DNA from: Candidatus Raymondbacteria bacterium RIFOXYA2_FULL_49_16
GTDB taxonomy: Bacteria; Fibrobacterota; OXYB2-FULL-49-7; XYB2-FULL-49-35
Length of the DNA stretch: 53,714 nt
NCBI GenBank assembly: GCA_001789205.1
Contig: MFYT01000021.1
Span: forward strand, 1-53,714
Direction: 5' to 3'
The notes beneath the pieces were generated by a model that ran no database searches, was not told the DNA's origin, and was given only the letters and a program-made list of their open reading frames with translations. The stretch's first letter is position 1, and each line of letters begins with the position of its first letter. Made by a program: the position numbers and the translations under genes. Shown one piece after another: positions 1 to 50,811 of this stretch.

Positions 1-1
1 C

Positions 2-102
2 GCAAGGTAACATCGCCGTTCAACCCGACGCCGCACCCGAACCATGTTTCTACATGGATCGGGTTTAATGCGGCGCAGGTTAACGGCGACGGCGTTGCCT
101 TG
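2..102 (+). other. attC-like integron recombination site 1
   Basis: Folds as a long imperfect hairpin with integron attC architecture. The outer boxes are AAGGTAAC (4-11) and GTTGCCTT (94-101), near inverse complements. The inner boxes are AACCCG-a-CGCCGCA (22-35) and TGCGGCG-CAGGTT (69-81); the left box carries one extra A at 28, the position of the extrahelical base in known attC L'' boxes. The centre (35-64) is itself a hairpin, ACCCGA/TCGGGT then CCATGT/ACATGG around TTCT. Its length near 100 nt fits the long attC class. Cleavage would fall within GTT at 94. A non-integron palindromic repeat is the alternative; the shared bulge at sites 1, 2 and 3 argues for attC. Confidence 0.6.
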
Positions 103-224
103 ACGTTATGCCACCGATATGGCTTGCAAAAGCTTGAAAACAATGAATATAAATGCAATTTATTTATGCGCCACGGAATGGCTGAAAAAAGCGTGAACAA
201 GCTTTTCCAATCCATGTGGCATAC

Positions 225-521: not shown

Positions 522-2375
522 ATGGATTTAACTTTCAAAATACATCAAACAAAAGCTGAAGAGATGGATCAATTATTAAAAGACATTATCAATTCTAACG
601 ATATCTTTAAAATTCACCTCGATCTACAAAATTATTACGTTCGTAAATCCCAATTATTAAAGGACGCTGGTAAAACTACCGAAGCGGAATTATCAAATTT
701 AGAATCGCTGTCGTTCGTTGGCGAGTTCAACCAGATACTCACAAATCCAAGAGAAAAATACGGCATTTATATTATCTGGGGTGCGCCACCTGATAATCAG
801 TCTCTTAATTGGCAGAGTACTTCTGAAGAAGGTTTTTACCATCTTTGGTGTTTGTGCAATTCTGCAACCATACCTCCAATAATCAAAATACACCATTTGA
901 CCATTTTATGGGAATGCAAAAAACTCTGGGCAGGCAAAAAACCTGAATTGCCAAAACCAATTGATGTTGCAGTTTTACTCATTAATAATTTAATAGACGT
1001 TGCCAATTGGATTAAGTCCCTCGATATTGACCCACTACTGAAGGGAATGGAATTAACCCGTTACCTAAATATTTCAGTCTTTTTAGCTTCTATTATTGGG
1101 CGAGATAACCTAATGACTAAAATTAGAACTGTTTTACAAGATAACTCAACGATTCTAATTGATACGGCCCCGCATTGGGCTCTTGCGTTAGTAGAATTAG
1201 AACTTCATTTGGCATCAAATAAAAAGGTGCGCAATGAAACCGTTGTTAGTAATGAACGGCTGACAGAAATCGAAATAGAAATTGACAGTATTTATCAAAG
1301 CCTGAAGCATAAAAATGATATAATGAATTTAAAAGAAGCAATCGATATAAAATCACGTCTTGATAAAATTATCGGTAAAGTAAGTGATGCAAAAGATATT
1401 TTTAATAGAAAAGGTGACGCATGTTCCGAATACGCAAAAAAGGCAGACTCAGGTCTTGCATCACATGTTTATTGGAAAGAAGCGGCAACTTATTATCAAT
1501 CTGCTGGAAACCAAGAAAAACTACGTATCTCATTAGAAGAAGCTAGAAAAGCTATTGAAAAAGCCGATGAAAATGGAGAATTTAAAGAAATACGGGTTGA
1601 ATTGAAAGTTGACGAGAAAGATATTAAAAAGGCGATTGAACCTTTTTTCAGAGGGATAAATAATCCGGCTGAAACATTATTCCGCATTTCCCAACGACTG
1701 TTTGCGACATCACTTGAAAAAACTACTTCTAATGTCACAGAAAAACCGACAAAATCGCTCGTTTCTCAGCTTTTTCCAACAATACCTATGGTTGATGACA
1801 GATCCCTTTCTTCCTTAGCACCAGATACGCTTGAACAGGATTTGTATGAATCAAAAAAGTCTCTGATGCATGAGATAGAAATTGCAAGCGCCCTTTATCT
1901 CGTGGAAATAATTCGAAAAACCATAGAAGATTTTGAATTATCCGAAGTTCATATACTAACCGCATTTGGGCAGAGTCCATTTATCGACAGAGAGGATATA
2001 CCTTTCCTGGAAGCTGCGGTGAATCGATTTATTCAAGAAGATTATTTGAGCTTCATTCATGTTCTTCTGCCAAGAATTGAACAAATAATAAGAAGATTAC
2101 TAAAAGCAGCTGGTGCTAAGATTACCACACTTGAAGGTGGGGCCTTGAAAGAAAAAACTCTCGGACAACTTATCCGATCTGCCTATGCTGATGATATTTT
2201 ACCAAAATCGTTCGCTCTATTTTTCCAGGCCACATTGACAGAAGAATGGGGATATAATCTTCGAAACAGAATGGCACATGGCTTATTAAAACAGGATGAG
2301 TGTTCCTTCAAGACGGCCGTGCGTGTTTTGCACATAGCGCTTGTAGTTACTGGTTTAAGATTGATTTCAAATTAA
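522..2375 (+). CDS. DUF4209-like protein with C-terminal HEPN-type motif
   Basis: A 617-residue soluble, helix-rich protein with no signal peptide or membrane segment. The N-terminal half has no motif I recognise. Residues roughly 290-360 form a charged helical, TPR-like stretch (an AATYYQSAGNQEK pattern). The last 150 residues resemble the DUF4209 family and contain RNRMAHG near residue 587. This fits the Rx4H signature of HEPN domains, many of which are RNases in abortive infection and toxin systems. No good ribosome binding site precedes the ATG at 522. Codons are AT-rich, like its neighbours in the cassette region and unlike the rest of the window. A defence role is inference from the motif and context; the start and fold are plausible but unproven. 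Confidence 0.6.
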   Translation: MDLTFKIHQTKAEEMDQLLKDIINSNDIFKIHLDLQNYYVRKSQLLKDAGKTTEAELSNLESLSFVGEFNQILTNPREKYGIYIIWGAPPDNQSLNWQSTSEEGFYHLWCLCNSATIPPIIKIHHLTILWECKKLWAGKKPELPKPIDVAVLLINNLIDVANWIKSLDIDPLLKGMELTRYLNISVFLASIIGRDNLMTKIRTVLQDNSTILIDTAPHWALALVELELHLASNKKVRNETVVSNERLTEIEIEIDSIYQSLKHKNDIMNLKEAIDIKSRLDKIIGKVSDAKDIFNRKGDACSEYAKKADSGLASHVYWKEAATYYQSAGNQEKLRISLEEARKAIEKADENGEFKEIRVELKVDEKDIKKAIEPFFRGINNPAETLFRISQRLFATSLEKTTSNVTEKPTKSLVSQLFPTIPMVDDRSLSSLAPDTLEQDLYESKKSLMHEIEIASALYLVEIIRKTIEDFELSEVHILTAFGQSPFIDREDIPFLEAAVNRFIQEDYLSFIHVLLPRIEQIIRRLLKAAGAKITTLEGGALKEKTLGQLIRSAYADDILPKSFALFFQATLTEEWGYNLRNRMAHGLLKQDECSFKTAVRVLHIALVVTGLRLISN

Positions 2376-3105: not shown

Positions 3106-6060
3106 ATGCGTAGAACATTATTTATTGCAGTAGCCCTAACGGTCGTCAGTTTTCTTTTATACTGTTCCAAGGAAAATCTCCTCGGGAACAATCAGCCTGC
3201 CGAAAGCAAGGATTCTGTCTCCATAACCACGAACATTTTGTTTAAGCAGGGTCAAATCCAGGTTTCTCCGGATAGCGTTGATAGTATCCGCTTGACTGTA
3301 ACCTATGGCAATGTGACTTTAACAAATTCTTTTTCATTTAGCGCACATCACGGAACCGTAGCACAGATTCCGGTAGACATACAATTTTCCCTGAAAATCG
3401 AAGGTTTAGACAACACAGGAACGGTTATCTATTCTGGAACACAAATATTTGATGGTTTTTCTGATGATGCTTCCGTTACCATCACGGCAAGCCAGGTCAC
3501 GTCTCGTGCTCCCTCGAACTTGAGACTCACGGCCCAGACCTCAACAATTATTCAAGTACAATGGAATGATAATTCCAGCAATGAACTCGGTTTTATCATC
3601 GAACGCAGCCAAGGCAATGATTCAAATTATACCGTAATTGATACAGGGATACCCAATCAGAAAGCTCTGGCAGATGATGCTGGCCTTCTGCCTGCAACGA
3701 TTTATTATTACCGGGTATGCGCCTTCAACGGTGCCGGAAAATCTGCCTACCTCGTCGAACAGGCCGTTCAGACACCACTTCAACAGCGGATTGACTCTAT
3801 TGCCCCCATACTTTTCGTCAGCGCTTTGCCAGAAAGCGTTTCGGTGGACAGCGTAACAGTTACCGGCAAGGCACACGATAGCAGCGGTATTTATAGCATA
3901 ACGGTAAACGGGCAAACAGCAACGTTATCCGCTGATAGCTCCTTCTCTGCTAAAATAAGGCTTAATTTGGGCAAAGACACCATCACGGTTATTGCCACAG
4001 ACAACAGTTCCCGGAAAAATGACACCACGGCAAAGCTCTACGTAATTTATGACCCCACGGCAAGCGACAATACGCCGCCGGTTGTTTCCTTTGTAAGTCC
4101 AATAAATAATGACACTGTTGGTTCCTTGTCTCTGACTCTGACTGGAACAGTCAATGACCTCGGAAGCGGGGTTGATTCAATAAAATGCCTGACAGGTGCT
4201 ACAGTTTCCCTCATAGGTATAAATTGGAGCGTCTCGGTTAATCTGCTCACCATTGGCCTGAATAAAATCACATTTATGGCATTGGATAAGCGCGGCAACA
4301 GAATTTATGACACTCTCCGTGTATTTGCCGATACTACAACCCTCGACACGGTTAAGCCTGTCATTTCTTTTGGCGGTCTAACCGCTGGATATATGTTTAC
4401 CAGCACACCCGCTCAAATAACCGTCCACATTACCGAAAATGGAAGCGGATTGGACACGGTCTATATAAACGGTGGTGTTGGCACCGTTTCAGGATCAGAC
4501 TGGACCCGGAGTGTAACGCTGACACCAGATTCAAATAGAATTCTGGTTTTGGCAAAGGATAAGGCTGGAAACAGGGGCATGGACAGTGTATTCGTCATTC
4601 TAAACCGCACGCCACAGTTTACAACGCTGAATTCAAACCTGGAAGCTATAGCTTACCTGAACCAGCAATATCGTGATACGGTTGCCGCGACCGACCCTGA
4701 CGGAGCAACTAGCCTGACATTCACGAAGCAGGCCGGACCAAGCGACATGACCGTTGGGATAACAAACGGAATAATTACCTGGACACCCATTGTAATAACA
4801 ACAATTCGATGCACCGTTATTGTTTCAGATAAGTATCAGGAAAGCGACACAATTACATGGACAATAAATGTGCTTGATACAACACCTAATATTTCGCCAT
4901 CTTTTATTCATGATTCAACAGCAATGACCGCTACTGCAACTATTGGTTCGCTGTATCGAGACACTGTTCATGCAACAGATTCTAATAACGATGCTTTAAC
5001 ATTTTCCCTTATCAGCAATATCGTTGAAATGAATTTAACAGACAGTATTATTAATTGGACACCTAAAATAAAAGATACAGGAGTTAAACCCATATTCATA
5101 AGAGTTGCTGATGGTCGTGGCGGCTACGACACCCTTTCATGGGGAATTCATGTTTTATTTAATATTGACACTATACAGTTAAGTTGGGCGCCAAATCGAA
5201 TAACAGTCAATCCTGATAGTAACCAATTATGGTTGTCTAGCTGGGCCGGAGCAGCGTTTGTTGGAATCGACTTGTTGGCGGATTCAATTATCAGCGTGGT
5301 TCCTTGTCTAAATTACCAAGATGGCCCATTGGGTGTTTGTTATAGCAATTATCAAGGGCCCAAAATCTACAGCTCATTACGAGGAAATGGAAGAGACGGG
5401 GGCAGTATGGCACTTATCGAATTAAACACAAGACCTTTTCCAATTTCAAAAGTAATCGTTAATTTAAATCCAATAGGCTGCATATCTCATCCTACAAATG
5501 GATTCATTTATACCACTCACGAAACAGCTCATAATATTACTGAATATTCAGAAGCACAGGCCAGGATAACCAGAACAATAAATGTGGGAACAGAAACCAG
5601 TGATATTAAAATAACCAAGAACGGCAACAAGGCATATGCGGTCGCTCAAAACGTGAACCAATTAAAAGTTATTTCAAGCTCTACATTTACCATTTCTAAA
5701 TCAATTACTTTGCCAGCCAAGCCGCAAAACATATTTCTTGACAATCAAGACTTGTATGGTTACGTGATATACGAAGATTCAAGGACAATAACTCAATTCA
5801 GTTTAACATCAGATCAGATTGTTGGACAACTTATCCAGGTCGGCAATTCATTAGGTTTTGGAACAACATCATCAGATGGTGAATTTGCATATGTAACCGA
5901 TTATCAAGGGAATAAAATATATAAAATCAACATTTCTTCAAAAACAATAGATGATTCATTATCCGTAGGAGTGCATCCAGCTGAAATATTATTTAACAAT
6001 AATAAATTGATTGTCGTAATAGAAGGGAACCATCAAATAATCATTACAGATAAATTCTAA
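3106..6060 (+). CDS. Large surface lipoprotein with FN3, Ig-like and propeller-like domains
   Basis: 984 residues. GGGAGG at 3094-3099 places the start at 3106; the ATG four bases earlier is out of frame and closes at once. A signal peptide ends in LLYC with Cys20 as the lipidation site. A fibronectin type III-like domain (about 135-222) contains APSNLRLTAQ and YYYRVCAFNGAG. Several Ig-like repeats of the 'DTVKPVISF' and 'GSGLDTVYING' kind follow (about 235-500), then two cadherin/dystroglycan-like repeats ending in ITWTP and INWTP (about 500-690). The last 290 residues are repeated beta strands of a YncE-like propeller. Base composition becomes clearly more AT-rich from about 4880 onward. 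An adhesive or binding surface role is likely from the domains; the ligand is unknown. Confidence 0.7.
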   Translation: MRRTLFIAVALTVVSFLLYCSKENLLGNNQPAESKDSVSITTNILFKQGQIQVSPDSVDSIRLTVTYGNVTLTNSFSFSAHHGTVAQIPVDIQFSLKIEGLDNTGTVIYSGTQIFDGFSDDASVTITASQVTSRAPSNLRLTAQTSTIIQVQWNDNSSNELGFIIERSQGNDSNYTVIDTGIPNQKALADDAGLLPATIYYYRVCAFNGAGKSAYLVEQAVQTPLQQRIDSIAPILFVSALPESVSVDSVTVTGKAHDSSGIYSITVNGQTATLSADSSFSAKIRLNLGKDTITVIATDNSSRKNDTTAKLYVIYDPTASDNTPPVVSFVSPINNDTVGSLSLTLTGTVNDLGSGVDSIKCLTGATVSLIGINWSVSVNLLTIGLNKITFMALDKRGNRIYDTLRVFADTTTLDTVKPVISFGGLTAGYMFTSTPAQITVHITENGSGLDTVYINGGVGTVSGSDWTRSVTLTPDSNRILVLAKDKAGNRGMDSVFVILNRTPQFTTLNSNLEAIAYLNQQYRDTVAATDPDGATSLTFTKQAGPSDMTVGITNGIITWTPIVITTIRCTVIVSDKYQESDTITWTINVLDTTPNISPSFIHDSTAMTATATIGSLYRDTVHATDSNNDALTFSLISNIVEMNLTDSIINWTPKIKDTGVKPIFIRVADGRGGYDTLSWGIHVLFNIDTIQLSWAPNRITVNPDSNQLWLSSWAGAAFVGIDLLADSIISVVPCLNYQDGPLGVCYSNYQGPKIYSSLRGNGRDGGSMALIELNTRPFPISKVIVNLNPIGCISHPTNGFIYTTHETAHNITEYSEAQARITRTINVGTETSDIKITKNGNKAYAVAQNVNQLKVISSSTFTISKSITLPAKPQNIFLDNQDLYGYVIYEDSRTITQFSLTSDQIVGQLIQVGNSLGFGTTSSDGEFAYVTDYQGNKIYKINISSKTIDDSLSVGVHPAEILFNNNKLIVVIEGNHQIIITDKF

Positions 6061-6293
6061 TCCAGTATAGCAGCATTGAAAATGGGCTGTACTCGCCGCT
6101 TACAACCGGATTTTCATCGGATGGTAAATAATCGGTGTTCTCAAGCAACCCTTTTGAACGGAAAAACTGAGAGTCTTAAATATATGACGGTACAACAAAT
6201 ATATGAGAAATAAAAATGGGCAAATGAACAGCTCAATAAAATGCCCACGATCGGTTGGTCAAACTCTCTAAACGCTTAAGATGTTGAGGAACC

Positions 6294-7337
6294 ATGCCTT
6301 TTCATGATAAAATTGTTTTTAGCCATTTTCACGATGAAGAATACGAAAGGAAAGCAAGTTTTTTCTCTCTCAAAAACCCAAATAAAAAAGTTAAAGTTTG
6401 TACTAAAGGGTCTGTTTCTATCACCAAATTAAGAAAGGATGATGGTGTTCCTGTAAAAAGTTATCAGAGTCTTGTACACTACATAGCTGAGTTAGGCCAT
6501 CAAAACCATGGACTTAATCTTTTTTTTCGTGGCCAATCATGTGATTTCAAAGATTCAAAAAACCAAACAAAACTTTATCCAGGGATATTTAGACCGCCAG
6601 AAAACAAAAAAGTTCTAAGCAGAAGAGAGATAACAAAACGGTTTTTAAAATTGAATGGTTTTATTCAGTATTTGCATGAATCTCCTCCTTCCCTAAATGC
6701 GCCTTTGAGCCGTCATCCAGAATATTGGTTTTCATTGCTCCAGCACTATGAAGTCCTCAAAACGCCGCTGCTTGATGTGACTCAGTCGCTTCGTGTTGCA
6801 GTAAGCTTCGCTCTTCTTGACGATAAATTTAAATATACCAGACAAGAAGGCTTTGTATTTGTTCTAGCTTTGCCATACTCAAATGGAAGCATTTCTAAAT
6901 ATGCTGACGATAATTTTGTTCTGGCACGATTGTCTAACATATGTCCACCAAATGCTCTTCGGCCCCACTTTCAAGAAGGCTATCTTGCAGGCCGCTGGCC
7001 AACTTCACACAAAAAGACAGAATATGACAATCTCGCATATCATCTGGTAGGAAAATATCGCCTACAGAATCAAAATGGAGATTTCTTTAACAAGGATTTT
7101 ATGCCTTTGCCATATGAAGCGTTATTCCCACAACTGGATGCATTCAGAGATTACCTTAATTTGATGAAAATAAAGTTTAAGGACGCTACTGACAAATTAA
7201 AGGAAATAAACCGCGATGATAGATGGGAACACAAAGCAACCACCTCCACCATCCCTGGCTCCGTCGGCAATGTCAGGAGCACTGGGAACAGGGGTGTTCT
7301 GAAAGAATCGCATGGAAAGACAAGACACTCAAACTGA
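6294..7337 (+). CDS. FRG-domain protein
   Basis: 347 residues, start supported by TGAGGA just upstream. Hallmarks of the FRG family are seen: LFFRGQS near residue 76, YPGIFR near residue 95, and QHYEVLKTPLLDVTQSLRVA around 150-170, matching the family's QHYG-x-TRLLDWT-xxxxAL pattern. FRG proteins are soluble, of unsettled biochemistry, and are common in phage-defence and abortive-infection neighbourhoods. The last 35 or so residues, from about THR-rich 'TTSTIPG' on, are encoded inside repeat copy B (7236-7344), so the native C-terminus has probably been replaced by cassette-junction sequence. An intergenic stretch of about 230 nt precedes the gene and shows only weak hairpins. A defence function is inference from family and context. 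Confidence 0.7.
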   Translation: MPFHDKIVFSHFHDEEYERKASFFSLKNPNKKVKVCTKGSVSITKLRKDDGVPVKSYQSLVHYIAELGHQNHGLNLFFRGQSCDFKDSKNQTKLYPGIFRPPENKKVLSRREITKRFLKLNGFIQYLHESPPSLNAPLSRHPEYWFSLLQHYEVLKTPLLDVTQSLRVAVSFALLDDKFKYTRQEGFVFVLALPYSNGSISKYADDNFVLARLSNICPPNALRPHFQEGYLAGRWPTSHKKTEYDNLAYHLVGKYRLQNQNGDFFNKDFMPLPYEALFPQLDAFRDYLNLMKIKFKDATDKLKEINRDDRWEHKATTSTIPGSVGNVRSTGNRGVLKESHGKTRHSN

Positions 7338-7344
7338 CCTGCAA
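7236..7344 (+). repeat. Cassette-associated repeat, copy B
   Basis: The core at 7249-7292 aligns without gaps with 8639-8682, sharing CCATCC-TGGCT-CG-CGGCAA-G-CAGG-GCACTG-GAA with only scattered mismatches. Similarity continues to CACTCAAA...CCTGCAA, matching CACCCAAA...CCTGCAA in copy C. The repeat overlaps the 3' end and stop codon of the FRG gene. The left hairpin arm seen in copy C is degenerate here. Confidence 0.6.
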
Positions 7345-7444
7345 AAGCAGCAAGGGGGCTGTGCATATGCTGTGCCCATTGTGGAAAATTTGCCCTACCA
7401 AAAACTATTTTCAAAGATGCACTAATAAAAAGGGAAGAAGGGAT

Positions 7445-8023
7445 ATGACAATAGAAATCAAAGGTAATTGGAAGAAGGGTTTGGCACTTGATTTGCATAC
7501 AGAATCGAGCACCTATCTTGGAACGGATGAAACTGGCCACGATAAATTTGATACCAAAAGAACTAAAATCGGTCAACTCGTTTACGATTTAAAGTATAGT
7601 GGTAACCAGGCCGCGGTCCCGCGAATAGTTGAAATTATTAGGGCTAATATTAAGCGCATCGATAAAATCGATGTTATTCTACCCGTTCCCCCCTCAAAAA
7701 GTCGCTCAGTTCAACCTGTACATCTGATTGCGGATGCTTTAGGTGCTGCTACTGGAATACCAGTCATTAAGAATGCCATAGTTAAGAAAAAAGAAACGCC
7801 AGAGCTAAAAAACATTAAGGACCCAGCCAAGCGTGAGGAGATTTTAAAAAATGCTTTTAGCCTTACCGGCAAATACGATTTTAAGGACAAAAAAGTTCTG
7901 TTTATTGACGACCTTTACAGGTCCGGTGCAACATTAAGGGCAATAACGAGTATTATCAAAGAGCAGGGACAAGCGGCTGATATCTTTGTCCTTACATTAA
8001 CTAAAACGAGGAGTAATCGGTAA
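7445..8023 (+). CDS. ComF-like phosphoribosyltransferase
   Basis: The ATG at 7445 follows GAAGAAGGG and gives 192 residues; a longer open frame upstream to 7223 runs through repeat B and lacks a ribosome site. The type I phosphoribosyltransferase PRPP loop is VLFIDDLYRSGATLRA near residue 155, preceded by the conserved PVPPSKSR strand-turn around 85. The N-terminal 40 residues (GLALDLHTESSTYLG) look like the ComF zinc-ribbon region but without its cysteines. The stop overlaps the start of the next gene (TAATG), so the two are translationally coupled. ComF proteins are usually linked to DNA uptake; here coupling to a SLOG-like gene inside cassette DNA suggests nucleotide-signal metabolism in a conflict system (inference). 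Confidence 0.75.
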   Translation: MTIEIKGNWKKGLALDLHTESSTYLGTDETGHDKFDTKRTKIGQLVYDLKYSGNQAAVPRIVEIIRANIKRIDKIDVILPVPPSKSRSVQPVHLIADALGAATGIPVIKNAIVKKKETPELKNIKDPAKREEILKNAFSLTGKYDFKDKKVLFIDDLYRSGATLRAITSIIKEQGQAADIFVLTLTKTRSNR

Positions 8024-8613
8024 TGAATAGAGTTTTCATTGGCGGTTCAAGGCACATCAGCCATTTAACCGATGACATAAAAAGTCGTCTGAAAAATATT
8101 GTTGAAAAACATTTACAGGTCTTGTTAGGCGATGCCAGCGGGGCAGACAAAGCTGTGCAATCGTATTTCAAGCAAGTTCACTATAACGACGTGCTTGTTT
8201 ATTGCTCTGGTAATTCCTGCCGTAACAATATCGGCAACTGGAATAAAATTAATGTTTCGGTTCCTCCCAATCTTCAGGGTTTGCAATTTTACATGGTAAA
8301 AGACTCGAAAATGGCTGAAGATTCTGATTATGGGTTTATGCTTTGGGATGGCAAGAGCTCGGGAACCTTAAGCAATGTTTTAAATCTTCTTTCACGTCAA
8401 AAACGAACTCTTCTGTATTTCTCACCGACCAAAGAATTCATAACAATTGCCAAGCTGTTTGACCTTAAACAACTTTTAATGAAATGCGACAAATCCGAAA
8501 TAGCCAAAATCGATAAGAAGATTGGCTTATACAAGACCATTGACACCTTGTCAAACCCAATACAAACAAACCTTGCGTTCTCATCGTCATCCTTGGAAAC
8601 TATAGAAATATAG
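8023..8613 (+). CDS. SLOG-superfamily (YspA/DprA-like) nucleotide-binding protein
   Basis: 196 residues starting one base into the stop codon of the phosphoribosyltransferase gene. The N-terminus MNRVFIGGSR is the glycine-rich first loop of Rossmannoid SLOG domains, followed by GDASGADKAVQ (about 37-48) and by AEDSDYGFMLWDGKSSGT (about 90-110), the acidic and second glycine-rich segments seen in YspA-type proteins. SLOG domains bind or process nucleotides and nucleotide-derived signals and include DprA and LOG cytokinin-activating enzymes. The C-terminal 60 residues are less conserved and end in a low-complexity serine run. With its partner it forms a compact two-gene cassette ending at attC-like site 3. 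Confidence 0.7.
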   Translation: MNRVFIGGSRHISHLTDDIKSRLKNIVEKHLQVLLGDASGADKAVQSYFKQVHYNDVLVYCSGNSCRNNIGNWNKINVSVPPNLQGLQFYMVKDSKMAEDSDYGFMLWDGKSSGTLSNVLNLLSRQKRTLLYFSPTKEFITIAKLFDLKQLLMKCDKSEIAKIDKKIGLYKTIDTLSNPIQTNLAFSSSSLETIEI

Positions 8614-8730: not shown

Positions 8731-8778
8731 TGAAAAGAACTTGACGCTATATCTGGAACAGCTTCGAAGAACACCAGC

Positions 8779-8839
8779 GCAAGGCAACATTGCCGCTCAA
8801 CCTGATGCGCCTGAGGCGCACAGGTTACCGGCGTTGTTA
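8779..8839 (+). other. attC-like integron recombination site 3
   Basis: The best compact attC-like site here, about 61 nt. The outer left box is AAGGCAAC (8781-8788) and the right box GTTGTTA (8833-8839). The inner arms AACCTG-a-TGCGCC (8799-8811) and GGCGCA-CAGGTT (8815-8826) pair perfectly around TGA except for one extra A at 8805, the expected extrahelical base. It follows the phosphoribosyltransferase-SLOG pair and would close that cassette. The upstream flank TTGACGCT...ACACCAGCGC is shared with the truncated site at 10370. Confidence 0.65.
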
Positions 8840-9020
8840 CTCGCCTGAATTGAACAAATACGGCGTCGGCGGAATACAAACCAAATTATTTCAAACCAAG
8901 CGCATTTCAGGAATAATGAGAATTAAAAATCCGCTGACAACTACATACCCACATATCATTTAATGATTGTATTATATACCATAATATGTTATATTAGTAG
9001 TATGGATCAAGAAGGTTTAA

Positions 9021-9407
9021 ATGTCCGATGAGGCGCTCAGGAAATTTTATTCGCAGTTATACTTAAAGGTTCAAGAAAAGATTTTCAGGACAGGAGAAGA
9101 ACGTGAAATCGCAGAACGAATTGTAATGGAAGAAAGGAGCAGAGGGAAACAGGTCAAAGGAACAAAATATTTAAAAATCAGGGTTCCATAAAAAAACAAA
9201 GGAAAAAGAGGAGGCGGACGGGTAATATATTACTATAGGGAAGGAAAATTTATCTTATACCTATTCATTTACGATAAATCTTATATGGAGGATCTTTCAC
9301 ATGATTTGAAAACGAAACTATCGAGGCTACTAAACGATTTATTACAAGTATTAATTGGAGCACAGAACCATGAAAACGAAAACCGAAGCCAGAACCCAAG
9401 CCTTTGA
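9021..9407 (+). pseudogene. RelE/HigB-type toxin interrupted by an in-frame stop
   Basis: One reading frame from ATG 9021 to TGA 9405-9407 (129 codons) is split by a single TAA at 9189-9191 at the start of a run of seven A. The first part ends GTKYLKIRVP and the second continues KRGGGRVIYYYREG, LFIYDKS and LSRLLNDL. Together these are the strand and KS/L-rich tail of HigB/RelE-type mRNA interferases. The frame is preserved on both sides, so the gene looks inactivated by a point nonsense change rather than a frameshift. The 3' end overlaps the downstream antitoxin start at 9370, the usual toxin-first HigBA order. The N-terminus is short for the family and a start further upstream cannot be excluded. 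A sequencing error in the A run is possible but would have to restore frame. Confidence 0.65.
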
Positions 9408-9861
9408 AAAAGAGGCGATTGATTTAATCGACAAGGAGATTGCAGAGCTTGAATCCGGAAAGAACACTATCATTTCCGGTGGCTATTACAGGGTTGAAAA
9501 ACCAATGTCAAAGGACGAGTTGATTTCTCTTCGTAAAAAACTCGGTGTTTCCCAAGTACAACTGGCCGACCTGATGCTTGTTTCTTTCCGGACGATTCAA
9601 TCCTATGAGCAGGGCATAAACAAAATACCCGGCCTCTTCGCAAGGGCACTCAGATTGGCCTGCACAAACAAGGTTTTTTACACCATCTTCGCGAACAATT
9701 TGTACAGCGAAGAAACAACAATAAATCTACACCCGGAAGTTATCCCCGAAACCGTGAAAGATGCCAAAGAGCAGATTAAGGGTGAAAGCCAGATGATTTC
9801 AAAATTCATGGACTTTTACAGGCACATTTCATCAAGCAGAAGGATGAGGAAGGCCGTATAA
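9370..9861 (+). CDS. HigA-like antitoxin / XRE-family regulator
   Basis: 163 residues from ATG 9370, preceded by GGAG at 9357-9360; the upstream TTG at 9355 is less likely. Residues about 55-110 form a Cro/C1-type helix-turn-helix (LRKKLGVSQVQLADLMLVSF, then RTIQSYEQG). The N-terminal 50 residues with GGYYRVE are a flexible toxin-binding type segment. The gene overlaps the end of the disrupted RelE/HigB-like toxin, so it is the cognate antitoxin and probable autorepressor of the pair. It appears intact although its toxin is not. Toxin-antitoxin pairs are frequent passengers of chromosomal integrons, where they stabilise the array. Confidence 0.75.
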   Translation: MKTKTEARTQAFEKEAIDLIDKEIAELESGKNTIISGGYYRVEKPMSKDELISLRKKLGVSQVQLADLMLVSFRTIQSYEQGINKIPGLFARALRLACTNKVFYTIFANNLYSEETTINLHPEVIPETVKDAKEQIKGESQMISKFMDFYRHISSSRRMRKAV

Positions 9862-43016: not shown

Positions 43017-43330
43017 CTATACATTAACCGTAATTATGCCGTTTGCGGTATACATTTCAACGACGTCCATTCTTTAATGTGAAAAAAGATACATATTCCT
43101 TGCACCGATAGCAATAGTATTTTCTCAACTCACAACTGCGGATGCATGGTTCCCCTGCCGGGAAACTCATGGCACCATGCACTCGCTTTCCTTGGCCGGA
43201 AACATTTCGCTGCTCGTATAGCTTTGCTGTGTTAGACCAATGGTTAAAGAGAATCTTTTTAAAAACGAGAAATAAAACGATCAACTCGCCTATCAATACA
43301 TACCATAAGAAAATCCTGGGAAAATATGGA
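43017..43330. other. Gap without a supported gene
   Basis: Between rex and the acetyltransferase gene. A minus-strand frame (43057-43170 from its internal ATG) would give a 37-residue peptide with four cysteines (C-ELRKYYC-YRC pattern), but it lacks a ribosome binding site. No strong hairpin or promoter is seen apart from AT-rich sequence near 43240-43270. Confidence 0.4.
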
Positions 43331-43783
43331 TCAACGCAGGGTCTTAATGTACTCCACAAGCGTGCCGCTGTTACGGTATTGTCCGCGCTTCATGAGCTTG
43401 TGCATGCCAGTGTTCCAGTTATAGACCAGGGCAACAACCCTGGTAATGCCTCTTTTCCTGCATATCTGTTCATACGCCGCTACCAGCCGTGTGCCTATTT
43501 TGTTTCTTCTCTCTTTAGCTGAAACCACCAGGTTTGCAAAGTAGCTGAACCGCGACTCTCGGTAGAATTCAGCGTCCAGGGCCCCGGCCACCCCTTGCCC
43601 ATTTTCCGCGACAATAAGAAGATCGTCCTTTGACCGTATCAGGCGTTTGAATCGCGCACGCGTGTGCAATCCCACGAAATCACTCACCGCCCGTTCCTTG
43701 CGGTACAGCGAAAGAAGGGCATTGATATCGCTGTCCCGGCCTTTGCGAATGCGTACAGCTTGCTTTAATTCCGATGATTTCAT
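43331..43783 (-). CDS. GNAT-family N-acetyltransferase
   Basis: 150 residues. Core GNAT elements: VRIRKGRDSDINALLSLY at the N-terminus, a central FANLVVSAKERRNKIGTRLV segment (about 87-106) carrying the acetyl-CoA phosphate loop (Q/R-x-x-G/A type, here RRNKIG), and MHKLMKRGQYRN near the C-terminus. Substrate unknown; related proteins acetylate small amines or protein N-termini. It is divergent from the peptide-binding lipoprotein gene, with 87 bp between starts. Confidence 0.78.
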   Translation of the reverse strand: MKSSELKQAVRIRKGRDSDINALLSLYRKERAVSDFVGLHTRARFKRLIRSKDDLLIVAENGQGVAGALDAEFYRESRFSYFANLVVSAKERRNKIGTRLVAAYEQICRKRGITRVVALVYNWNTGMHKLMKRGQYRNSGTLVEYIKTLR

Positions 43784-43832
43784 GGCACATAATATACAAT
43801 TTCGTGAAATAGTGAAGCGATTGTTTACCTCT

Positions 43833-43870
43833 TTGCCCTCACCTGCCAGAAAATTGTATAATTCTATATA
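43833..43870 (+). promoter_or_regulatory. Promoter giving a possibly leaderless transcript
   Basis: TTGCCC (43833-43838) and TATAAT (43857-43862) are separated by 18 bases. The ATG of the downstream gene begins nine bases after the -10, at the expected transcription start, and no ribosome binding site precedes it. Confidence 0.45.
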
Positions 43871-45634
43871 ATGCGTATTTTAAAATTCTTCCTGTTTATT
43901 GCAGCAATTACCTGCACCATGCTTTTCTTTGCGTGCAGTTCCCAGCCTTCGGCTGAAAAACAGCTGCGCGAAAAAGAGCGTCGTAAAACCGCCATTTTCG
44001 ACATTGCCAGCGCACGCATTGTCAATCCACTGATGTGGAATCCCCTTATGATCACGGCCCGTCTCGATCAGGGCCTTCACCAGGCAATGATGGAACCGCT
44101 CTTCATCCTCAATTATCAGACCAATGCCATAGAACCATGGCTGGGCCTGGAAATGATCTCCAATACCGCAATGGACATCTGGACGCTCAAACTGCGGCCC
44201 GGGATTGAATGGAGCGACGGCCACCCGTTCACGGTCGATGATATTATCTTTACCACAGACCTTCTTGTCCGCAACGCGCCCATGTTCAGGTATTCGGCAC
44301 AACTGGCCAAATATGTGAAACGCATGCGTAAAATCGACAGCCTGAACATGGTTTTCGAACTGAAAGCGCCCAACCCCCGGTTTCAACTCGACCACTGGAT
44401 CATCAGGATGTGGGGTAGCTGCTCAGTGGTTCCCAAACATATTTTCAAGGACAAAGATCCGCTTACCTTTTCGTTCTACGACCCCCAGAAGGGATGGCCC
44501 GTATTCACCGGACCGTATGTATTGAAAAACGCCACGCAGACCGAATTTAATTTCATCCGGAACAACAACTGGTGGGGGGCAAAAACCGGCTTTAAGCCCC
44601 TGCCCAGGCCCGAATATCTCAAATTCGTGTGGTATGGGCCCGAGGAAACAAGGACTGCGGCCATGGCTGCCAGCAATCTTGACGCCATCATGGACATCTC
44701 GCTTGGCGCCTTCCTTGCGCTCAAACGCCGTAACCCTAACATCATTGCATGGTACGATCACTCTCCCTATGCAACACTCGACCCCTGCCCGCGCAGCCTT
44801 GAATTCAACTGCGCGGTGGAGCCGTGGAACGATAAGGACATGCGATGGGCGGTGAACTGGGCCATTGACCGCGCCATTGTCATCAGCATTGCGTACGAAG
44901 GGACATCCGTGCCATCAACGTGCATGTTCCCTCTCTATCCGCCGCTCATGCATTATATGGAGATGTCGAAAAAATTCGCGGCAAACAATGATGCGCCTCT
45001 TGATGCGTACAACCCCGGCATGACGCGTTCTATATTCGAATCCAAAGGATACCATTTGAACAAAAACGGATACTACGAAAAGGACGGCAAGGAACTGGGG
45101 TTTACCATCACCACCATGGAGAGCGAGATTGAGCACCAGCGCACGGCCCAGATCATTGTGGAACAGCTCCAGGCTGCCGGTATTGATGCGACCACCAGGG
45201 TTGAGGCGACTGGCACATGGATGGACAACTACTATTATGGTAATTTTGAAGCGCGCATAGGCTGGGAATCGTGCGCGTCAGCCAATGAACCATGGGCAAC
45301 CATGGACATGTTCAACGAGCGATGGGTTGTGCCGCTTGGCAAAAGAGGTAATTTAAACTGCTACCGATGGTCAAACGTGGAATACAGCAGGCTGGTGGAT
45401 AGCATCGGCGTTTTACCGCTGGGCGATCCCCGCATCGATTCCCTCTACGCGCAGGCCATGAAAATCTGGTACCATGAACTTCCGGTGGTGCCTATTGCGC
45501 AGGCAAAAAAACTCATCCCCTTCTGCACCACATACTGGAAAGGCTGGCCAACCGCGGACAATCCGTACATACAGCCATTTACCTGGTGGCAATCGACACA
45601 GGTTATTTTACACAAACTAGAACCCGTTGAATAA
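43871..45634 (+). CDS. Peptide/solute-binding lipoprotein (ABC family 5)
   Basis: 587 residues. Signal peptide with lipobox LFFACSS (Cys22). The family-5 solute-binding fold (DppA/OppA) is shown by TWTLKLRPGIEWSDGHPF-like text (about 93-117), VDDIIFTTDLL, GPYVLKN (about 213) and DMRWAVNWAIDRAI (about 320-333). These proteins bind oligopeptides, nickel or oligosaccharides in the periplasm. No permease or ATPase gene is in the window, so it is an orphan; it may serve a distant transporter or act as a sensor partner. It converges with the sigma54 activator gene 21 bases later. Confidence 0.82.
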   Translation: MRILKFFLFIAAITCTMLFFACSSQPSAEKQLREKERRKTAIFDIASARIVNPLMWNPLMITARLDQGLHQAMMEPLFILNYQTNAIEPWLGLEMISNTAMDIWTLKLRPGIEWSDGHPFTVDDIIFTTDLLVRNAPMFRYSAQLAKYVKRMRKIDSLNMVFELKAPNPRFQLDHWIIRMWGSCSVVPKHIFKDKDPLTFSFYDPQKGWPVFTGPYVLKNATQTEFNFIRNNNWWGAKTGFKPLPRPEYLKFVWYGPEETRTAAMAASNLDAIMDISLGAFLALKRRNPNIIAWYDHSPYATLDPCPRSLEFNCAVEPWNDKDMRWAVNWAIDRAIVISIAYEGTSVPSTCMFPLYPPLMHYMEMSKKFAANNDAPLDAYNPGMTRSIFESKGYHLNKNGYYEKDGKELGFTITTMESEIEHQRTAQIIVEQLQAAGIDATTRVEATGTWMDNYYYGNFEARIGWESCASANEPWATMDMFNERWVVPLGKRGNLNCYRWSNVEYSRLVDSIGVLPLGDPRIDSLYAQAMKIWYHELPVVPIAQAKKLIPFCTTYWKGWPTADNPYIQPFTWWQSTQVILHKLEPVE

Positions 45635-45654
45635 GACGCATCCCATGGGACGCG

Positions 45655-48210
45655 CTATCCGTTGGCCTGTCCCATTTTGGCGGAGCGCATATCTTCCGAT
45701 GATTTAAAATAAACGCGGCGGCCTCTGTATTCCTTTACCACGCTGCCGTTCTTGCAGAGTTCATCCAGGTATTTCCTGGCCGTATTGGCGGCGCTCCTCA
45801 TCTTTACTTTAAAATCATTAAAGGTAAAGATATTATCGCTAAAAGATTCGAGCGCTTTCCGTATTTCCACCTGCCGGGAAACGCCCAGACCGTATATGGC
45901 CAGATACCGTTTGATGGTATTGTACGAACAGCCGAAATATGCCGCCAGTTTATGGGGTTTGCCGTAAAACCTGTCATACGCCTCCGAGAACACCCTCTTG
46001 TCGCTGAACGATCTGTTCCCGGGCCTATCGTCAACCGTATCTACGCCTGGTTCGCGCCCCCTTTGCGTACCGCTGGTTTCGGTTCCTGCTGTTTCGAATA
46101 ATTTATTCTTCATATATTCGGGAAAATGCGCGGCGGTTATCGTCTGTTCGCGGTGGATGACCAGCGCGTTTTCTATGGCGTTTTTCAGTTCGCGGACATT
46201 GCCCGGCCAATTGTAGTGCAGCAGCGCGGGAAACACATCGTTGGCAATGTTCGGTATTGGAATATCATTCTGCCGGGCAATGGTGATGATGAGATTATCA
46301 ATAATCGGATACATGTCCATGAGCCGCTCGCGTAGCGGCGGAATATTGATGTGGACCACCTTGATACGGTAGTATAAATCCGCCCTGAACCTTCCCCTTC
46401 TGACCTCTTCCTCCAGGTTGACGTTCGTGGCCGCAATAATACGGACATCAGACTGAAGGGTTTTCTTGCCCCCAAGCCGCTCGAATTGCCGGTCCTGTAG
46501 AAAACGGAGCAGTTTCATCTGCACTTCAAGCGACAGATTGCCAATTTCATCAAGGAACAAGGTGCCGTTATCAGCCTGCTCGAACTTGCCTGGTTTCATA
46601 TGGTCAGCGCCTGTGAACGCTCCGCGCTCATGGCCGAAAAGCTCGCTCTCAATGAGGGTCACTGGCAGAGAAGCGCAGTCAAGTTTTATCATGGGCCCTT
46701 TCCGCCCGCTCTCAGCGTGTACGGCAGTAGCGGCCACATCCTTGCCTGTTCCGGTCTCGCCGGTTATAAGCACCGAGACATTGGTCTTTGCAACCGCCTG
46801 AATGCTGTTGATTACAGCCTCAATGGCCGGTGAAGCGCCGAAGAGTCCGTGAAAGCCTTTTTCAGAATTCGCAAGACGCATAAGCGCCCGGTCACGGTCT
46901 TTTTTGTATGATAACAGCCGCTCCTCCACTCGCGTCAGTTCGTTGAGCTCTCGCATGAGAAGGAAATTCCCGATTTTATCAAGATGCTGGCCTGGGAATA
47001 TCTGCATTTCATAATAATGCTGTTCATCGTTTTTAAACCTGACTGGTTTACGGTATTCCCTCATTCGGTCATAATTAAAAGCGCTGTCCCGTATGGATAT
47101 TCTAACCAAAGAGAACTGTTCATTGGCATTGGCGATAAACCCGAACCTGTTCAGCCTGGCAAAATCGCTGTAAAAAGGTATCTCATCGATATAGCGTATG
47201 ATCTCTTTTTCATTGACCGTTACGGAAATTACCGGACCCGTCTTGATAACGGCAACTGTGTGCACTTGTTCTGACAGTTCAACAGCGCTGACCGGGTTGG
47301 AATTCCGTTTTAGTATCGCTTTGTTCTCAGTGAAGTGGAGTAGATACCCGTTTTCGTCCGGGGTAAGCAGTGGTTCGTCAATGCCGCAGAAAAACACGCC
47401 TCCGCCATTGCTGGAGATGCGATATTCAACCTTGAAATCCTTGGTGAAAAAATCAAAGGTGGTGTTTGAAACAAGGAAATAGCCCTCCATGTATTCAGGG
47501 GCCTCAAGGGCAACGTTTAAATCACGGATGTTCCAGGACGCATGACGCGTATCGAAAAGCCGTGAAAACCCATCGCGTGAGGAATCGAAGAACAGCTCCC
47601 ACTCCGGGACGTTTTTTTCGGACTGCGCGCGCACATACATGAGGAATTCCTGCCGCGCCTGTTCCCATGCCTTGAAATCACCGGCCACCAGGCATTCCTT
47701 CAGGTTTACGCCGCGAAATTTTATTTTCCCGAAGATCTGGAGAAGTTTCTTGTAAAACCGGTCTCCAAACTCCTCGATACGGTACTGGTCGTCCATTATC
47801 GCGAACAATTCCTTGACGTAGAACAATAATATCCGCTCAATAGTGTATGGGAGCGCTATCGCCGAGTACATAAAAAAACCGTCAAAATCACCAAGACGAT
47901 CTATCTGAACATGAACGCCTTCTCTCGATGGCCTAATGTTGCTCGTGAAGACGGCTAATGTATTTTCTGATATTCGCGGATTTGGAATGATGCGGCACCG
48001 GATCTTTGTGGCAATGGTGTTTTCTGAAATGATCTCCAATAAAGTCCTGAACTCTTTTCCTTGTATATCCTTCAATTCATAGCCGCTTATATTGGTAAAA
48101 TCCCTGGATATCCAAACAATTTTCCCCTCTCTATCCGTGGAAAAAGAAGCTATGGGAGCATTGTTTAATATGGTGATTGCCGTGCTTTTTTCGAATTGTG
48201 AAAAATTCAT
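45655..48210 (-). CDS. Sigma54-dependent activator with PAS and beta-sandwich sensor domains
   Basis: 851 residues. N-terminal PAS domain (about 12-115; GKIVWISRDFTNISGYE). A second region of about 120-195 is probably PAS-like. From about 203 to 375 there is a beta-rich segment (WNIRDLNVAL, FFTKDFKVEYRISSNGGGVFF, FNYDRMREY boundary) that resembles a LamG/concanavalin-like sandwich. A coiled coil (about 410-450) leads to the AAA+ domain (about 455-690) with GETGTGKDV, GAFTGA and GTLFLDEIGN intact. The C-terminus has a helix-turn-helix (LAAYFGCSYNTIKRYLAIYG) and a further winged-helix-like part instead of a simple Fis domain. No membrane segment, so it senses in the cytoplasm. Targets unknown; the palindromes at 48254-48284 may be autoregulatory. 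Confidence 0.85.
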   Translation of the reverse strand: MNFSQFEKSTAITILNNAPIASFSTDREGKIVWISRDFTNISGYELKDIQGKEFRTLLEIISENTIATKIRCRIIPNPRISENTLAVFTSNIRPSREGVHVQIDRLGDFDGFFMYSAIALPYTIERILLFYVKELFAIMDDQYRIEEFGDRFYKKLLQIFGKIKFRGVNLKECLVAGDFKAWEQARQEFLMYVRAQSEKNVPEWELFFDSSRDGFSRLFDTRHASWNIRDLNVALEAPEYMEGYFLVSNTTFDFFTKDFKVEYRISSNGGGVFFCGIDEPLLTPDENGYLLHFTENKAILKRNSNPVSAVELSEQVHTVAVIKTGPVISVTVNEKEIIRYIDEIPFYSDFARLNRFGFIANANEQFSLVRISIRDSAFNYDRMREYRKPVRFKNDEQHYYEMQIFPGQHLDKIGNFLLMRELNELTRVEERLLSYKKDRDRALMRLANSEKGFHGLFGASPAIEAVINSIQAVAKTNVSVLITGETGTGKDVAATAVHAESGRKGPMIKLDCASLPVTLIESELFGHERGAFTGADHMKPGKFEQADNGTLFLDEIGNLSLEVQMKLLRFLQDRQFERLGGKKTLQSDVRIIAATNVNLEEEVRRGRFRADLYYRIKVVHINIPPLRERLMDMYPIIDNLIITIARQNDIPIPNIANDVFPALLHYNWPGNVRELKNAIENALVIHREQTITAAHFPEYMKNKLFETAGTETSGTQRGREPGVDTVDDRPGNRSFSDKRVFSEAYDRFYGKPHKLAAYFGCSYNTIKRYLAIYGLGVSRQVEIRKALESFSDNIFTFNDFKVKMRSAANTARKYLDELCKNGSVVKEYRGRRVYFKSSEDMRSAKMGQANG

Positions 48211-48253
48211 TTATTTTAGTCCTTTCCTGAAATTTTAATAATACTTCTCATTA

Positions 48254-48284
48254 TTCAATATAATATATTGAACATCAATTGATG
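48254..48284. promoter_or_regulatory. Adjacent palindromes in a divergent promoter region
   Basis: TTCAATATA-A-TATATTGAA is a perfect nine-base dyad (48254-48272), followed without gap by CATCAATTGATG (48273-48284), a perfect twelve-base palindrome. They lie between the divergent sigma54 activator gene (start 48210) and the small coiled-coil/LRR operon, as expected of an operator. Confidence 0.55.
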
Positions 48285-48380
48285 CTATGGCCTTTTTGGG
48301 TTTGCCCTGTATCTCGCCTATCTCATTTGTTTTCAACCAATAATCTATATGGCGTACTGTTTGCATTATTATTTAGAAAA

Positions 48381-48572
48381 ATGGAAAACAAAATGAATGC
48401 TACAAATCTGAATCAATTGTTTGAAGAATATAAGAAAGTATACGACCAGATAAATTATCCGATAGAAAAAGAATTGTTTATCGCTAAACAAAGAAAGCTG
48501 GAAGAGCTGAGCGAGAAAATTAAATATATGCAATTAAAACAAAAAATAAAGTATTCAAACAATCTTTATTAA
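48381..48572 (+). CDS. Small charged helical protein, coupled to the LRR gene
   Basis: 63 residues from ATG 48381, with a second ATG at 48393; neither has a strong ribosome site. The protein is one or two long amphipathic helices rich in Lys and Glu (LFEEYKKVYDQINYPIEKEL, KLEELSEKIKYMQLK), suited to a coiled coil. Its stop codon abuts the AAGGAG of the LRR gene, so translation of the two is likely coupled. No family recognised. It could be a small regulator or chaperone for the secreted protein. Confidence 0.5.
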   Translation: MENKMNATNLNQLFEEYKKVYDQINYPIEKELFIAKQRKLEELSEKIKYMQLKQKIKYSNNLY

Positions 48573-48584
48573 GGAGTGAGACGT

Positions 48585-50783: not shown

Positions 50784-50811
50784 TCTTCACGTTCAATAAG
50801 GAGGATATGGT

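What the first reader, a model, noticed from the sequence alone, without database searches (positions are those of the whole stretch)
7445..8613. Two-gene phosphoribosyltransferase plus SLOG cassette
A ComF-like PRPP-motif enzyme lacking the usual zinc-ribbon cysteines is translationally coupled (TAATG) to a YspA/DprA-like SLOG protein and closed by an attC-like site. SLOG proteins are predicted to sense or make nucleotide signals in conflict systems, so this could be a compact, uncharacterised nucleotide-signal defence or stress module.
Basis: partly seen in the sequence, partly recalled or inferred. Interest (0 to 1): 0.72.

Follow-up and report, generated by a model that had tools for sequence, protein, structure and literature searches.

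The report
Compact PRTase–SLOG toxin–antitoxin pair
Two overlapping genes on a foreign, cassette-like stretch of a Fibrobacterota genome look like a miniature form of the known ShosTA/PsyrTA toxin–antitoxin systems, in which a phosphoribosyl-transferring enzyme poisons the cell unless a DprA-like partner protein restrains it; the same pair turns up on plasmids, proviruses and chromosomes of many bacterial phyla, yet the defence-gene library used here recognises only its toxin half.

Summary
A 192-aa phosphoribosyltransferase (PRTase, 7445-8023) overlaps by one base (TAATG) a 196-aa SLOG protein (8023-8613), and a real attC-like site follows (8774-8847). The pair is not sporadic. Of 80 homologous SLOG loci from more than ten phyla, 65 have a PRTase next door, usually with a 4-base overlap; all 51 full-length plasmid PRTases found have the SLOG beside them. 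By sequence the PRTase matches the PRTase part of PsyrT and ShosT. By predicted fold the SLOG's best PDB match is ShosA, and ShosT is among the PRTase's best. Breakage is lopsided: 21 of 76 intact SLOGs have a broken or missing PRTase, but no intact plasmid PRTase lacks its SLOG. This is what a toxin (PRTase) and antitoxin (SLOG) would show. The locus sits in a ~10-kb low-GC, attC-bearing stretch with two candidate defence genes (DUF4209, FRG). I read it as a compact variant of the known PRTase + DprA/SLOG toxin–antitoxin/phage-defence kind, unrecognised on its antitoxin side by PADLOC. It is not a new nucleotide-signal system; neither toxicity nor phage defence was tested.

The parts
7445..8023 (+). 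PRTase (putative toxin), 192 aa; PRPP loop VLFIDDLYRSGAT at residues 151-163, PPi-loop-like LPVPPS at 79-84, family-specific N-terminal GNWxxGxALDxHTxxS motif in place of the ComFC zinc ribbon
8021..8025 (+). TAATG: PRTase stop and SLOG start overlap by one base (translational coupling; in 44 of 55 intact homologous pairs the overlap is 4 bases)
8023..8613 (+). SLOG protein (putative antitoxin), 196 aa; motifs GGSR (7-10), GDASGAD (36-42), RNN (67-69), WDGKSSGT (108-115) collinear with the DprA/PsyrA motifs VGAR, SGFAKGVD, GGGTW
8774..8847 (+). attC-like recombination site: conserved arms GCAAGGCAACATTGCCGCTCAACCTGA ... CAGGTTACCGGCGTTGTT, hairpin with an extrahelical base
1..103 (+). second attC-like site, same orientation, cut by the contig start; marks the other end of the cassette-like stretch (too long, 8.7 kb, for one ordinary cassette)
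6294..7337 (+). neighbour: FRG-domain protein (PF08867), matches PADLOC candidate defence family PDC-S15; not part of the conserved pair
522..2375 (+). neighbour: DUF4209 protein, matches PADLOC candidate defence family PDC-S39; not part of the conserved pair
9370..9861 (+). neighbour: XRE/HigA-like HTH protein preceded (about 9022-9350) by what reads by eye like a frame-broken RelE/HigB-type toxin; a separate toxin-antitoxin remnant, not the pair's own regulator

Best explanation
The pair is a compact toxin-antitoxin module of the PRTase + DprA/SLOG kind (ShosTA, PsyrTA, RqlHI), carried on horizontally acquired DNA and probably serving phage defence and/or its own maintenance. Shown here: the two genes form a conserved overlapping unit; the PRTase keeps its PRPP-binding residues; the SLOG has a ShosA/DprA-like predicted fold; the PRTase is lost or broken while the SLOG survives, and the reverse was not seen. 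Inferred from named relatives: the PRTase is the toxin, consuming PRPP and disturbing the nucleotide pool with DNA damage and filamentation when unrestrained (as for ShosT and the RqlH PRTase domain); the SLOG restrains it, either by binding it (as RqlI binds RqlH) or by counteracting its effect on DNA (as proposed for ShosA). Translational coupling keeps antitoxin matched to toxin. Release during infection, perhaps when phage DNA intermediates or shut-off of host transcription withdraw the SLOG, would stop the infected cell; this step is the least certain.
For: PRTase: PADLOC PsyrT 6.8e-19 (only its C-terminal PRTase part, 529-686) and ShosT 5.6e-10; all 52 homologues match PsyrT and 48 match ShosT; fold matches include ShosT 8zvb/8zvd/8zvc. 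SLOG: best PDB fold match is ShosA 8zva, E 2.9e-4, prob 1.00, then DprA and YpsA. Same gene order and overlap as true PsyrTA loci in the same phylum (RecQ-PRTase then DprA-like protein, PsyrA model 8e-74). Pairing: 65/80 genome loci, 22 of 24 viral-contig loci with a PRTase hit beside the SLOG, one of them partial, all 51 full-length plasmid PRTases. Asymmetry: 76 non-edge loci with intact SLOG have 55 intact, 13 broken and 8 absent PRTases; no intact plasmid PRTase lacks the SLOG (0/51; Fisher p about 1e-5, or 0.01 if only about 18 independent plasmid lineages are assumed); two plasmid PRTases without a SLOG are themselves broken by a frameshift or an IS. Two plasmid SLOGs end in a PF21716 addiction-module antidote HTH (E 6e-21, 8e-23), the layout reported for RqlI; about a dozen further SLOGs have a tail of like length. 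Mobile setting: 40% GC island in a 53% GC window, attC sites, many conjugative plasmids. Literature: PMC9122126, PMC4670107, PMC12593503.
Against: No toxicity, neutralisation or phage data for this subfamily. A PsyrT/ShosT match alone is weak proof: a fragment of the genome's own ordinary ComF also scores 2.9e-11. The SLOG has no PADLOC hit at all and is not detectably related by sequence profile to ShosA/PsyrA; the link is fold and motif order. The fold match is remote (TM-score about 0.5, 14% identity). The PRTase forms its own grouping apart from RecQ-PRTases, in a quick tree with low backbone support. The two sides of the asymmetry test come from different collections and plasmid copies are not independent.
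Confidence: 0.75

Rival explanations
1. Nucleotide-signal module: the PRTase makes a nucleotide-like signal on infection and the SLOG senses it, or the SLOG makes the signal.
For: SLOG domains bind nucleotide signals in Thoeris and TRPM2, and the BcThsA SLOG domain is among the fold matches (rank 11, E 2.9e-3); residues invariant in 51 SLOGs lie by the model's secondary structure at the strand ends/loops where SLOG ligands bind.
Against: No third gene that would act as effector or signal degrader was seen to recur in the neighbourhoods read; ShosA and DprA are better fold matches than ThsA; PRTase-broken, SLOG-intact loci are hard to explain if the SLOG needs the PRTase's product; antitoxin-type HTH fused to some SLOGs.
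Confidence: 0.1
2. Enzymatic antitoxin (a sub-case of the toxin-antitoxin reading): the SLOG neutralises the PRTase not by binding it but by destroying or sequestering its toxic nucleotide product (LOG-family SLOGs are phosphoribohydrolases, the chemical reverse of a PRTase).
For: About twenty SLOG residues are 100% conserved across many phyla (G8 S9 G36 D37 A38 G40 D42 Q46 R67 N69 G71 W73 D94 G104 W108 D109 S112 G114 K127), more than a plain binding partner seems to need.
Against: The LOG catalytic glutamate (GTxxE) is Asn; DprA-type SLOGs bind DNA, not mononucleotides; RqlI binds RqlH directly.
Confidence: 0.15
3. Housekeeping or competence function: a ComFC-like and a DprA-like protein working together in DNA uptake or nucleotide salvage.
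For: ComFC and DprA are the classical homologues; top PRTase fold hit is H. pylori ComF.
Against: Zinc ribbon absent and separate grouping from the CxxC ComFs; the genome has its own ComF (G000:C18); patchy distribution (of 168 phylum genomes only the window's and three others carry the pair, one of those with a PRTase fragment), plasmid and provirus carriage, broken copies.
Confidence: 0.03

Closest known systems
ShosTA (PRTase toxin ShosT + DprA-like antitoxin ShosA; phage defence in E. coli; PDB 8zva-8zvd)
   Same: Two-gene PRTase + SLOG-fold pair; PRTase matches the ShosT model (5.6e-10; 48/52 homologues) and ShosT structures; SLOG's best fold match in the PDB is ShosA; carried on mobile DNA.
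   Different: ShosT chains in the PDB are 393-424 aa and ShosA 308 aa against 192 and 196 aa here; ShosA is a full DprA-like protein, here only a short YspA/DprA-like SLOG core with no ShosA/PsyrA profile match.
PsyrTA / RqlHI (RecQ helicase-PRTase toxin + DprA-like antitoxin with C-terminal HTH)
   Same: Gene order and overlap; PRTase matches PsyrT 6.8e-19; some homologous SLOGs carry a C-terminal HTH as RqlI does; RqlH toxicity resides in its PRTase domain and needs the PRPP-site aspartate (PMC4670107).
   Different: No helicase part; SLOG not full DprA; separate PRTase grouping.
ComFC (competence phosphoribosyltransferase)
   Same: PRTase fold, LKY and PRPP motifs; NCBIfam TIGR00201 match 6e-14, far below its cut-off.
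   Different: No zinc ribbon, distinct N-terminal motif, regularly paired with a SLOG, on mobile DNA.
YspA/YAcAr, YpsA and LOG-type SLOG proteins
   Same: SLOG fold, GS and GDAxGAD motifs; weak YAcAr matches in 5/51 homologues.
   Different: Motif 3 GTxxN rather than the LOG catalytic GTxxE; linked to a PRTase.

Membership tests
ShosTA | PRTase toxin recognised by the ShosT model | tested here: met
   PADLOC ShosT 5.6e-10 for the window, 48/52 homologues; but a fragment of ordinary ComF also scores 1.2e-10
ShosTA | DprA-like antitoxin recognised by the ShosA model | tested here: not met
   no ShosA/PsyrA hit for the window SLOG or relatives; positive control: Fibrobacter DprA-like proteins L057/L060 hit PsyrA/ShosA at 1e-11 to 1e-75; fold match to ShosA only
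ShosTA | toxicity of the PRTase neutralised by the SLOG; phage protection | not testable with these tools
   needs expression and phage assays
PsyrTA / RqlHI | RecQ-like helicase fused to the PRTase | tested here: not met
   192-aa PRTase only; helicase-bearing homologues exist in the phylum as a separate group
PsyrTA / RqlHI | PRTase gene followed by overlapping SLOG/DprA gene | tested here: met
   window TAATG; 44/55 intact homologous pairs overlap by 4 nt; same in Fibrobacter PsyrTA
PRTase + SLOG toxin-antitoxin kind (superset) | conserved operon, PRPP-site residues kept, partner with SLOG fold, antitoxin outlives toxin in decayed loci | tested here: met
ComFC | N-terminal zinc ribbon (CxxC pairs) | tested here: not met
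   no Cys in the window PRTase; CxxC in 7/52 of the short family; present in the ComFC-type homologues
LOG phosphoribohydrolase | PGGxGTxxE catalytic motif | tested here: not met
   GTLSN, N118 in 98%
Integron gene cassette | attC site downstream of the gene, repeated with variable centre | tested here: met
   10 sites at E<=0.01 genome-wide, array spacing 1.2-1.4 kb
Integron gene cassette | IntI integrase in the genome | tested here: not met
   no match over the TIGR02249 cut-off (best 121 of 265 bits); assembly is fragmented, so a CALIN (attC cluster without integrase) is the safe label

The most novel reading that the evidence does not exclude
A widespread toxin-antitoxin family in which the short SLOG antitoxin works chemically or as a ligand sensor: it binds or removes the abnormal nucleotide made by the PRTase, and infection releases the toxin by changing that ligand, rather than by simple protein-protein inhibition. 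The evidence (about twenty invariant residues at the SLOG ligand edge, absence of the DprA extensions) does not exclude it.
Probability: 0.15. Interest if true: 0.7.

Novelty: new variant of a known kind. Interest (0 to 1): 0.44.

Why it matters
PRTase + DprA toxin–antitoxin systems are recognised phage-defence modules whose chemistry is only now being worked out. This compact family strips the kind to a bare PRTase and a bare SLOG domain (about 190 aa each), occurs in more than ten phyla and on clinical Klebsiella, Enterobacter and E. coli plasmids and in gonococcus, and its antitoxin half is invisible to the PADLOC models, so surveys with that library will miss it. It gives a minimal pair for asking what ShosT-like PRTases make from PRPP and how a SLOG domain alone restrains them.

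Tried and rejected
Long ORF start at 7223 (266 aa) rejected by homologue alignment. Sequence-profile link from the SLOG to PsyrA (hhalign against a single sequence) and to any PDB sequence failed; only fold and motif order link them. PsyrT/ShosT model scores alone judged not decisive after the ComF fragment control. Search of the phage collection with the SLOG found nothing, and the single-sequence viral scan found nothing, but the alignment scan found 24 viral-contig loci. A PRTase-side viral scan could not be run (alignment not conserved enough), nor could PRTase-side genome searches centred on other phyla, so the PRTase side of the asymmetry test rests on plasmids. The downstream HTH gene at 9370 was considered as the pair's regulator and rejected: it follows the remains of its own RelE/HigB-like toxin. 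Rfam gave no attC or other family above threshold. The careful tree did not finish; the quick tree was used.

Full report
What is there. A 192-aa PRTase gene (7445-8023) and a 196-aa SLOG gene (8023-8613) overlap as TAATG. The PRTase has Pfam PF00156 at the edge of its cut-off, a good ribosome-binding stretch, a complete PRPP loop and no cysteines. The SLOG protein has no Pfam, NCBIfam or PADLOC family of note.

What the PRTase is. PADLOC places it with the PRTase part of PsyrT (6.8e-19) and with ShosT (5.6e-10), and this holds for 52 and 48 of 52 homologues. Caution: a fragment of the genome's ordinary ComF also matches these models at about 1e-11, so the models alone do not separate toxin from ComF. 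A quick tree does: the window protein lies among short, SLOG-paired PRTases (nearest Pelotomaculum L085, 59% identity), apart from RecQ-PRTases and from CxxC-bearing ComFCs. Residues kept in at least 98% of 52 members include H18, S22, G26, K50, R87, K122, D155, D156, G161 and T186. AlphaFold2 gives a confident PRTase fold (pLDDT 94.7); the best PDB matches are H. pylori ComF, PurR and ShosT.

What the SLOG is. AlphaFold2 pLDDT 93.3. Best PDB match: ShosA of E. coli APEC O1 (8zva, E 2.9e-4), then DprA, YpsA and the ThsA SLOG domain. Its motifs line up with those of PsyrA from Fibrobacter (GGSR with VGAR, GDASGAD with SGFAKGVD, KSSGT with GGGTW), though profile comparison does not reach significance. 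Two plasmid relatives, annotated as addiction module antidote protein, end in a PF21716 HTH domain; about a dozen of the 80 genome SLOGs are 261 aa or longer. Two Chitinispirillaceae/Fibrobacter relatives carry a different ~220-aa extension.

Co-occurrence. From 80 SLOG loci across many phyla (Fibrobacterota, Bacillota, Pseudomonadota, Acidobacteriota, Chloroflexota, Planctomycetota, Nitrospirota, Lentisphaerota and others), 65 have a PRTase within 200 nt upstream; of 55 intact pairs, 44 overlap by 4 nt and 6 by 1 nt. On plasmids, 60 records hold the PRTase (E <= 1e-12): 51 full-length, all with the SLOG beside them (50 from the overlap, one). In viral contigs 22 of 24 SLOG loci have the PRTase beside them, one of these partial.

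Toxin or partner enzyme? Among 76 loci with an intact SLOG and enough upstream DNA, 13 have a frameshifted, nonsense-broken or truncated PRTase and 8 have none; two of those eight still show the last residues of a PRTase (L140, L161). On plasmids, seven Agrobacterium/Allorhizobium records have a broken PRTase and intact SLOG, and the two PRTases without SLOG (X. perforans, C. braakii) are broken themselves, the latter by an IS. No full-length plasmid PRTase lacks the SLOG: 0/51 against 21/76, Fisher p about 1e-5, or 0.01 if only about 18 independent plasmid lineages are assumed. This is the pattern of a toxin that cannot be kept without its antitoxin. The two samples come from different collections and were found with different queries, so I treat the test as strong support and not proof.

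Setting. The first 10.4 kb of the window is 40% GC against 53% for the rest. attC-like sites lie at 1-103 and 8774-8847, with conserved arms, variable centres and hairpin folding; about ten exist genome-wide, mostly near contig ends, three in a row on C101, where the cassettes include a RhuM family protein and genes that read like HipBA and an AbiE-type pair (by eye). No integron integrase passes the cut-off. The neighbours include DUF4209 (PDC-S39) and FRG (PDC-S15) candidate defence genes. The 8.7 kb between the two window sites is too long for one ordinary cassette, so calling the pair 'a cassette' is an inference.

How it most likely works. By analogy with relatives whose function was tested: the RqlH PRTase domain is genotoxic, needs its PRPP-site aspartate, and is restrained by RqlI, which binds it (PMC4670107); ShosT is described as a phosphoribosyltransferase/pyrophosphatase that disturbs purine pools and causes DNA duplications and filamentation, countered by DNA-binding ShosA, with T7 Gp0.7 as trigger (PMC12593503 citing Pu et al. 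2025); a DprA + PRTase pair from a P2 hotspot protects against T7 and lambda (PMC9122126). The window pair should therefore be a PRPP-using toxin held in check by its SLOG. Whether the SLOG binds the toxin, acts on DNA or acts on the product is open.

Verdict. A compact variant of a known toxin–antitoxin/phage-defence kind; not a member of ShosTA or PsyrTA as those are modelled (no ShosA/PsyrA match, no helicase), but it very likely works like them.

Noticed in passing
L038 (Neisseria gonorrhoeae NZ_CP119142.1, record 43319-51810 reversed): pair 3435-4549, carA-like 70-1269, carB-like 4556-7771: In gonococcus the PRTase-SLOG pair sits between the carA and carB genes, its SLOG stop 6 nt before carB; an odd place, inside the carbamoyl-phosphate (pyrimidine) locus.
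   Followed up: no
L036 5001-5846, L037 4001-4867, L126, L131, L132, L135, L143, L147, L156, L159: SLOG proteins of about 275-304 aa; in the two scanned (L036, L037) the tail is a PF21716 antitoxin HTH domain: SLOG-HTH fusion antitoxins.
   Followed up: partly
L009 826-2067 (-), L010 826-2058 (-): Two Fibrobacterota relatives have SLOG proteins of about 410 aa with an uncharacterised ~220-aa C-terminal extension; no confident Pfam family in the one scanned (L009).
   Followed up: no
G000 contigs C101, C23, C33, C107, C1, C21: About ten attC-like sites in a Fibrobacterota genome, several at contig ends, without a recognisable IntI: an attC cluster whose assembly broke at the repeats; C101 cassettes look like toxin-antitoxin genes (RhuM, HipBA-like, possible AbiE-type pair).
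   Followed up: partly
window 9022-9350: Broken RelE/HigB-like toxin reading frame (by eye) directly before an intact HigA-like HTH gene (9370-9861): another toxin-dead, antitoxin-kept remnant.
   Followed up: no
L057-L060, L066: Complete PsyrTA loci (RecQ-PRTase + DprA-like) in several Fibrobacter genomes.
   Followed up: partly
L032 847-2004: A protein with an alpha/beta-hydrolase-like N-terminal part fused to a SLOG domain of the same family in a Fibrobacteraceae genome (G077); short SLOGs of this family also seem to occur without a PRTase (L012-L030).
   Followed up: no
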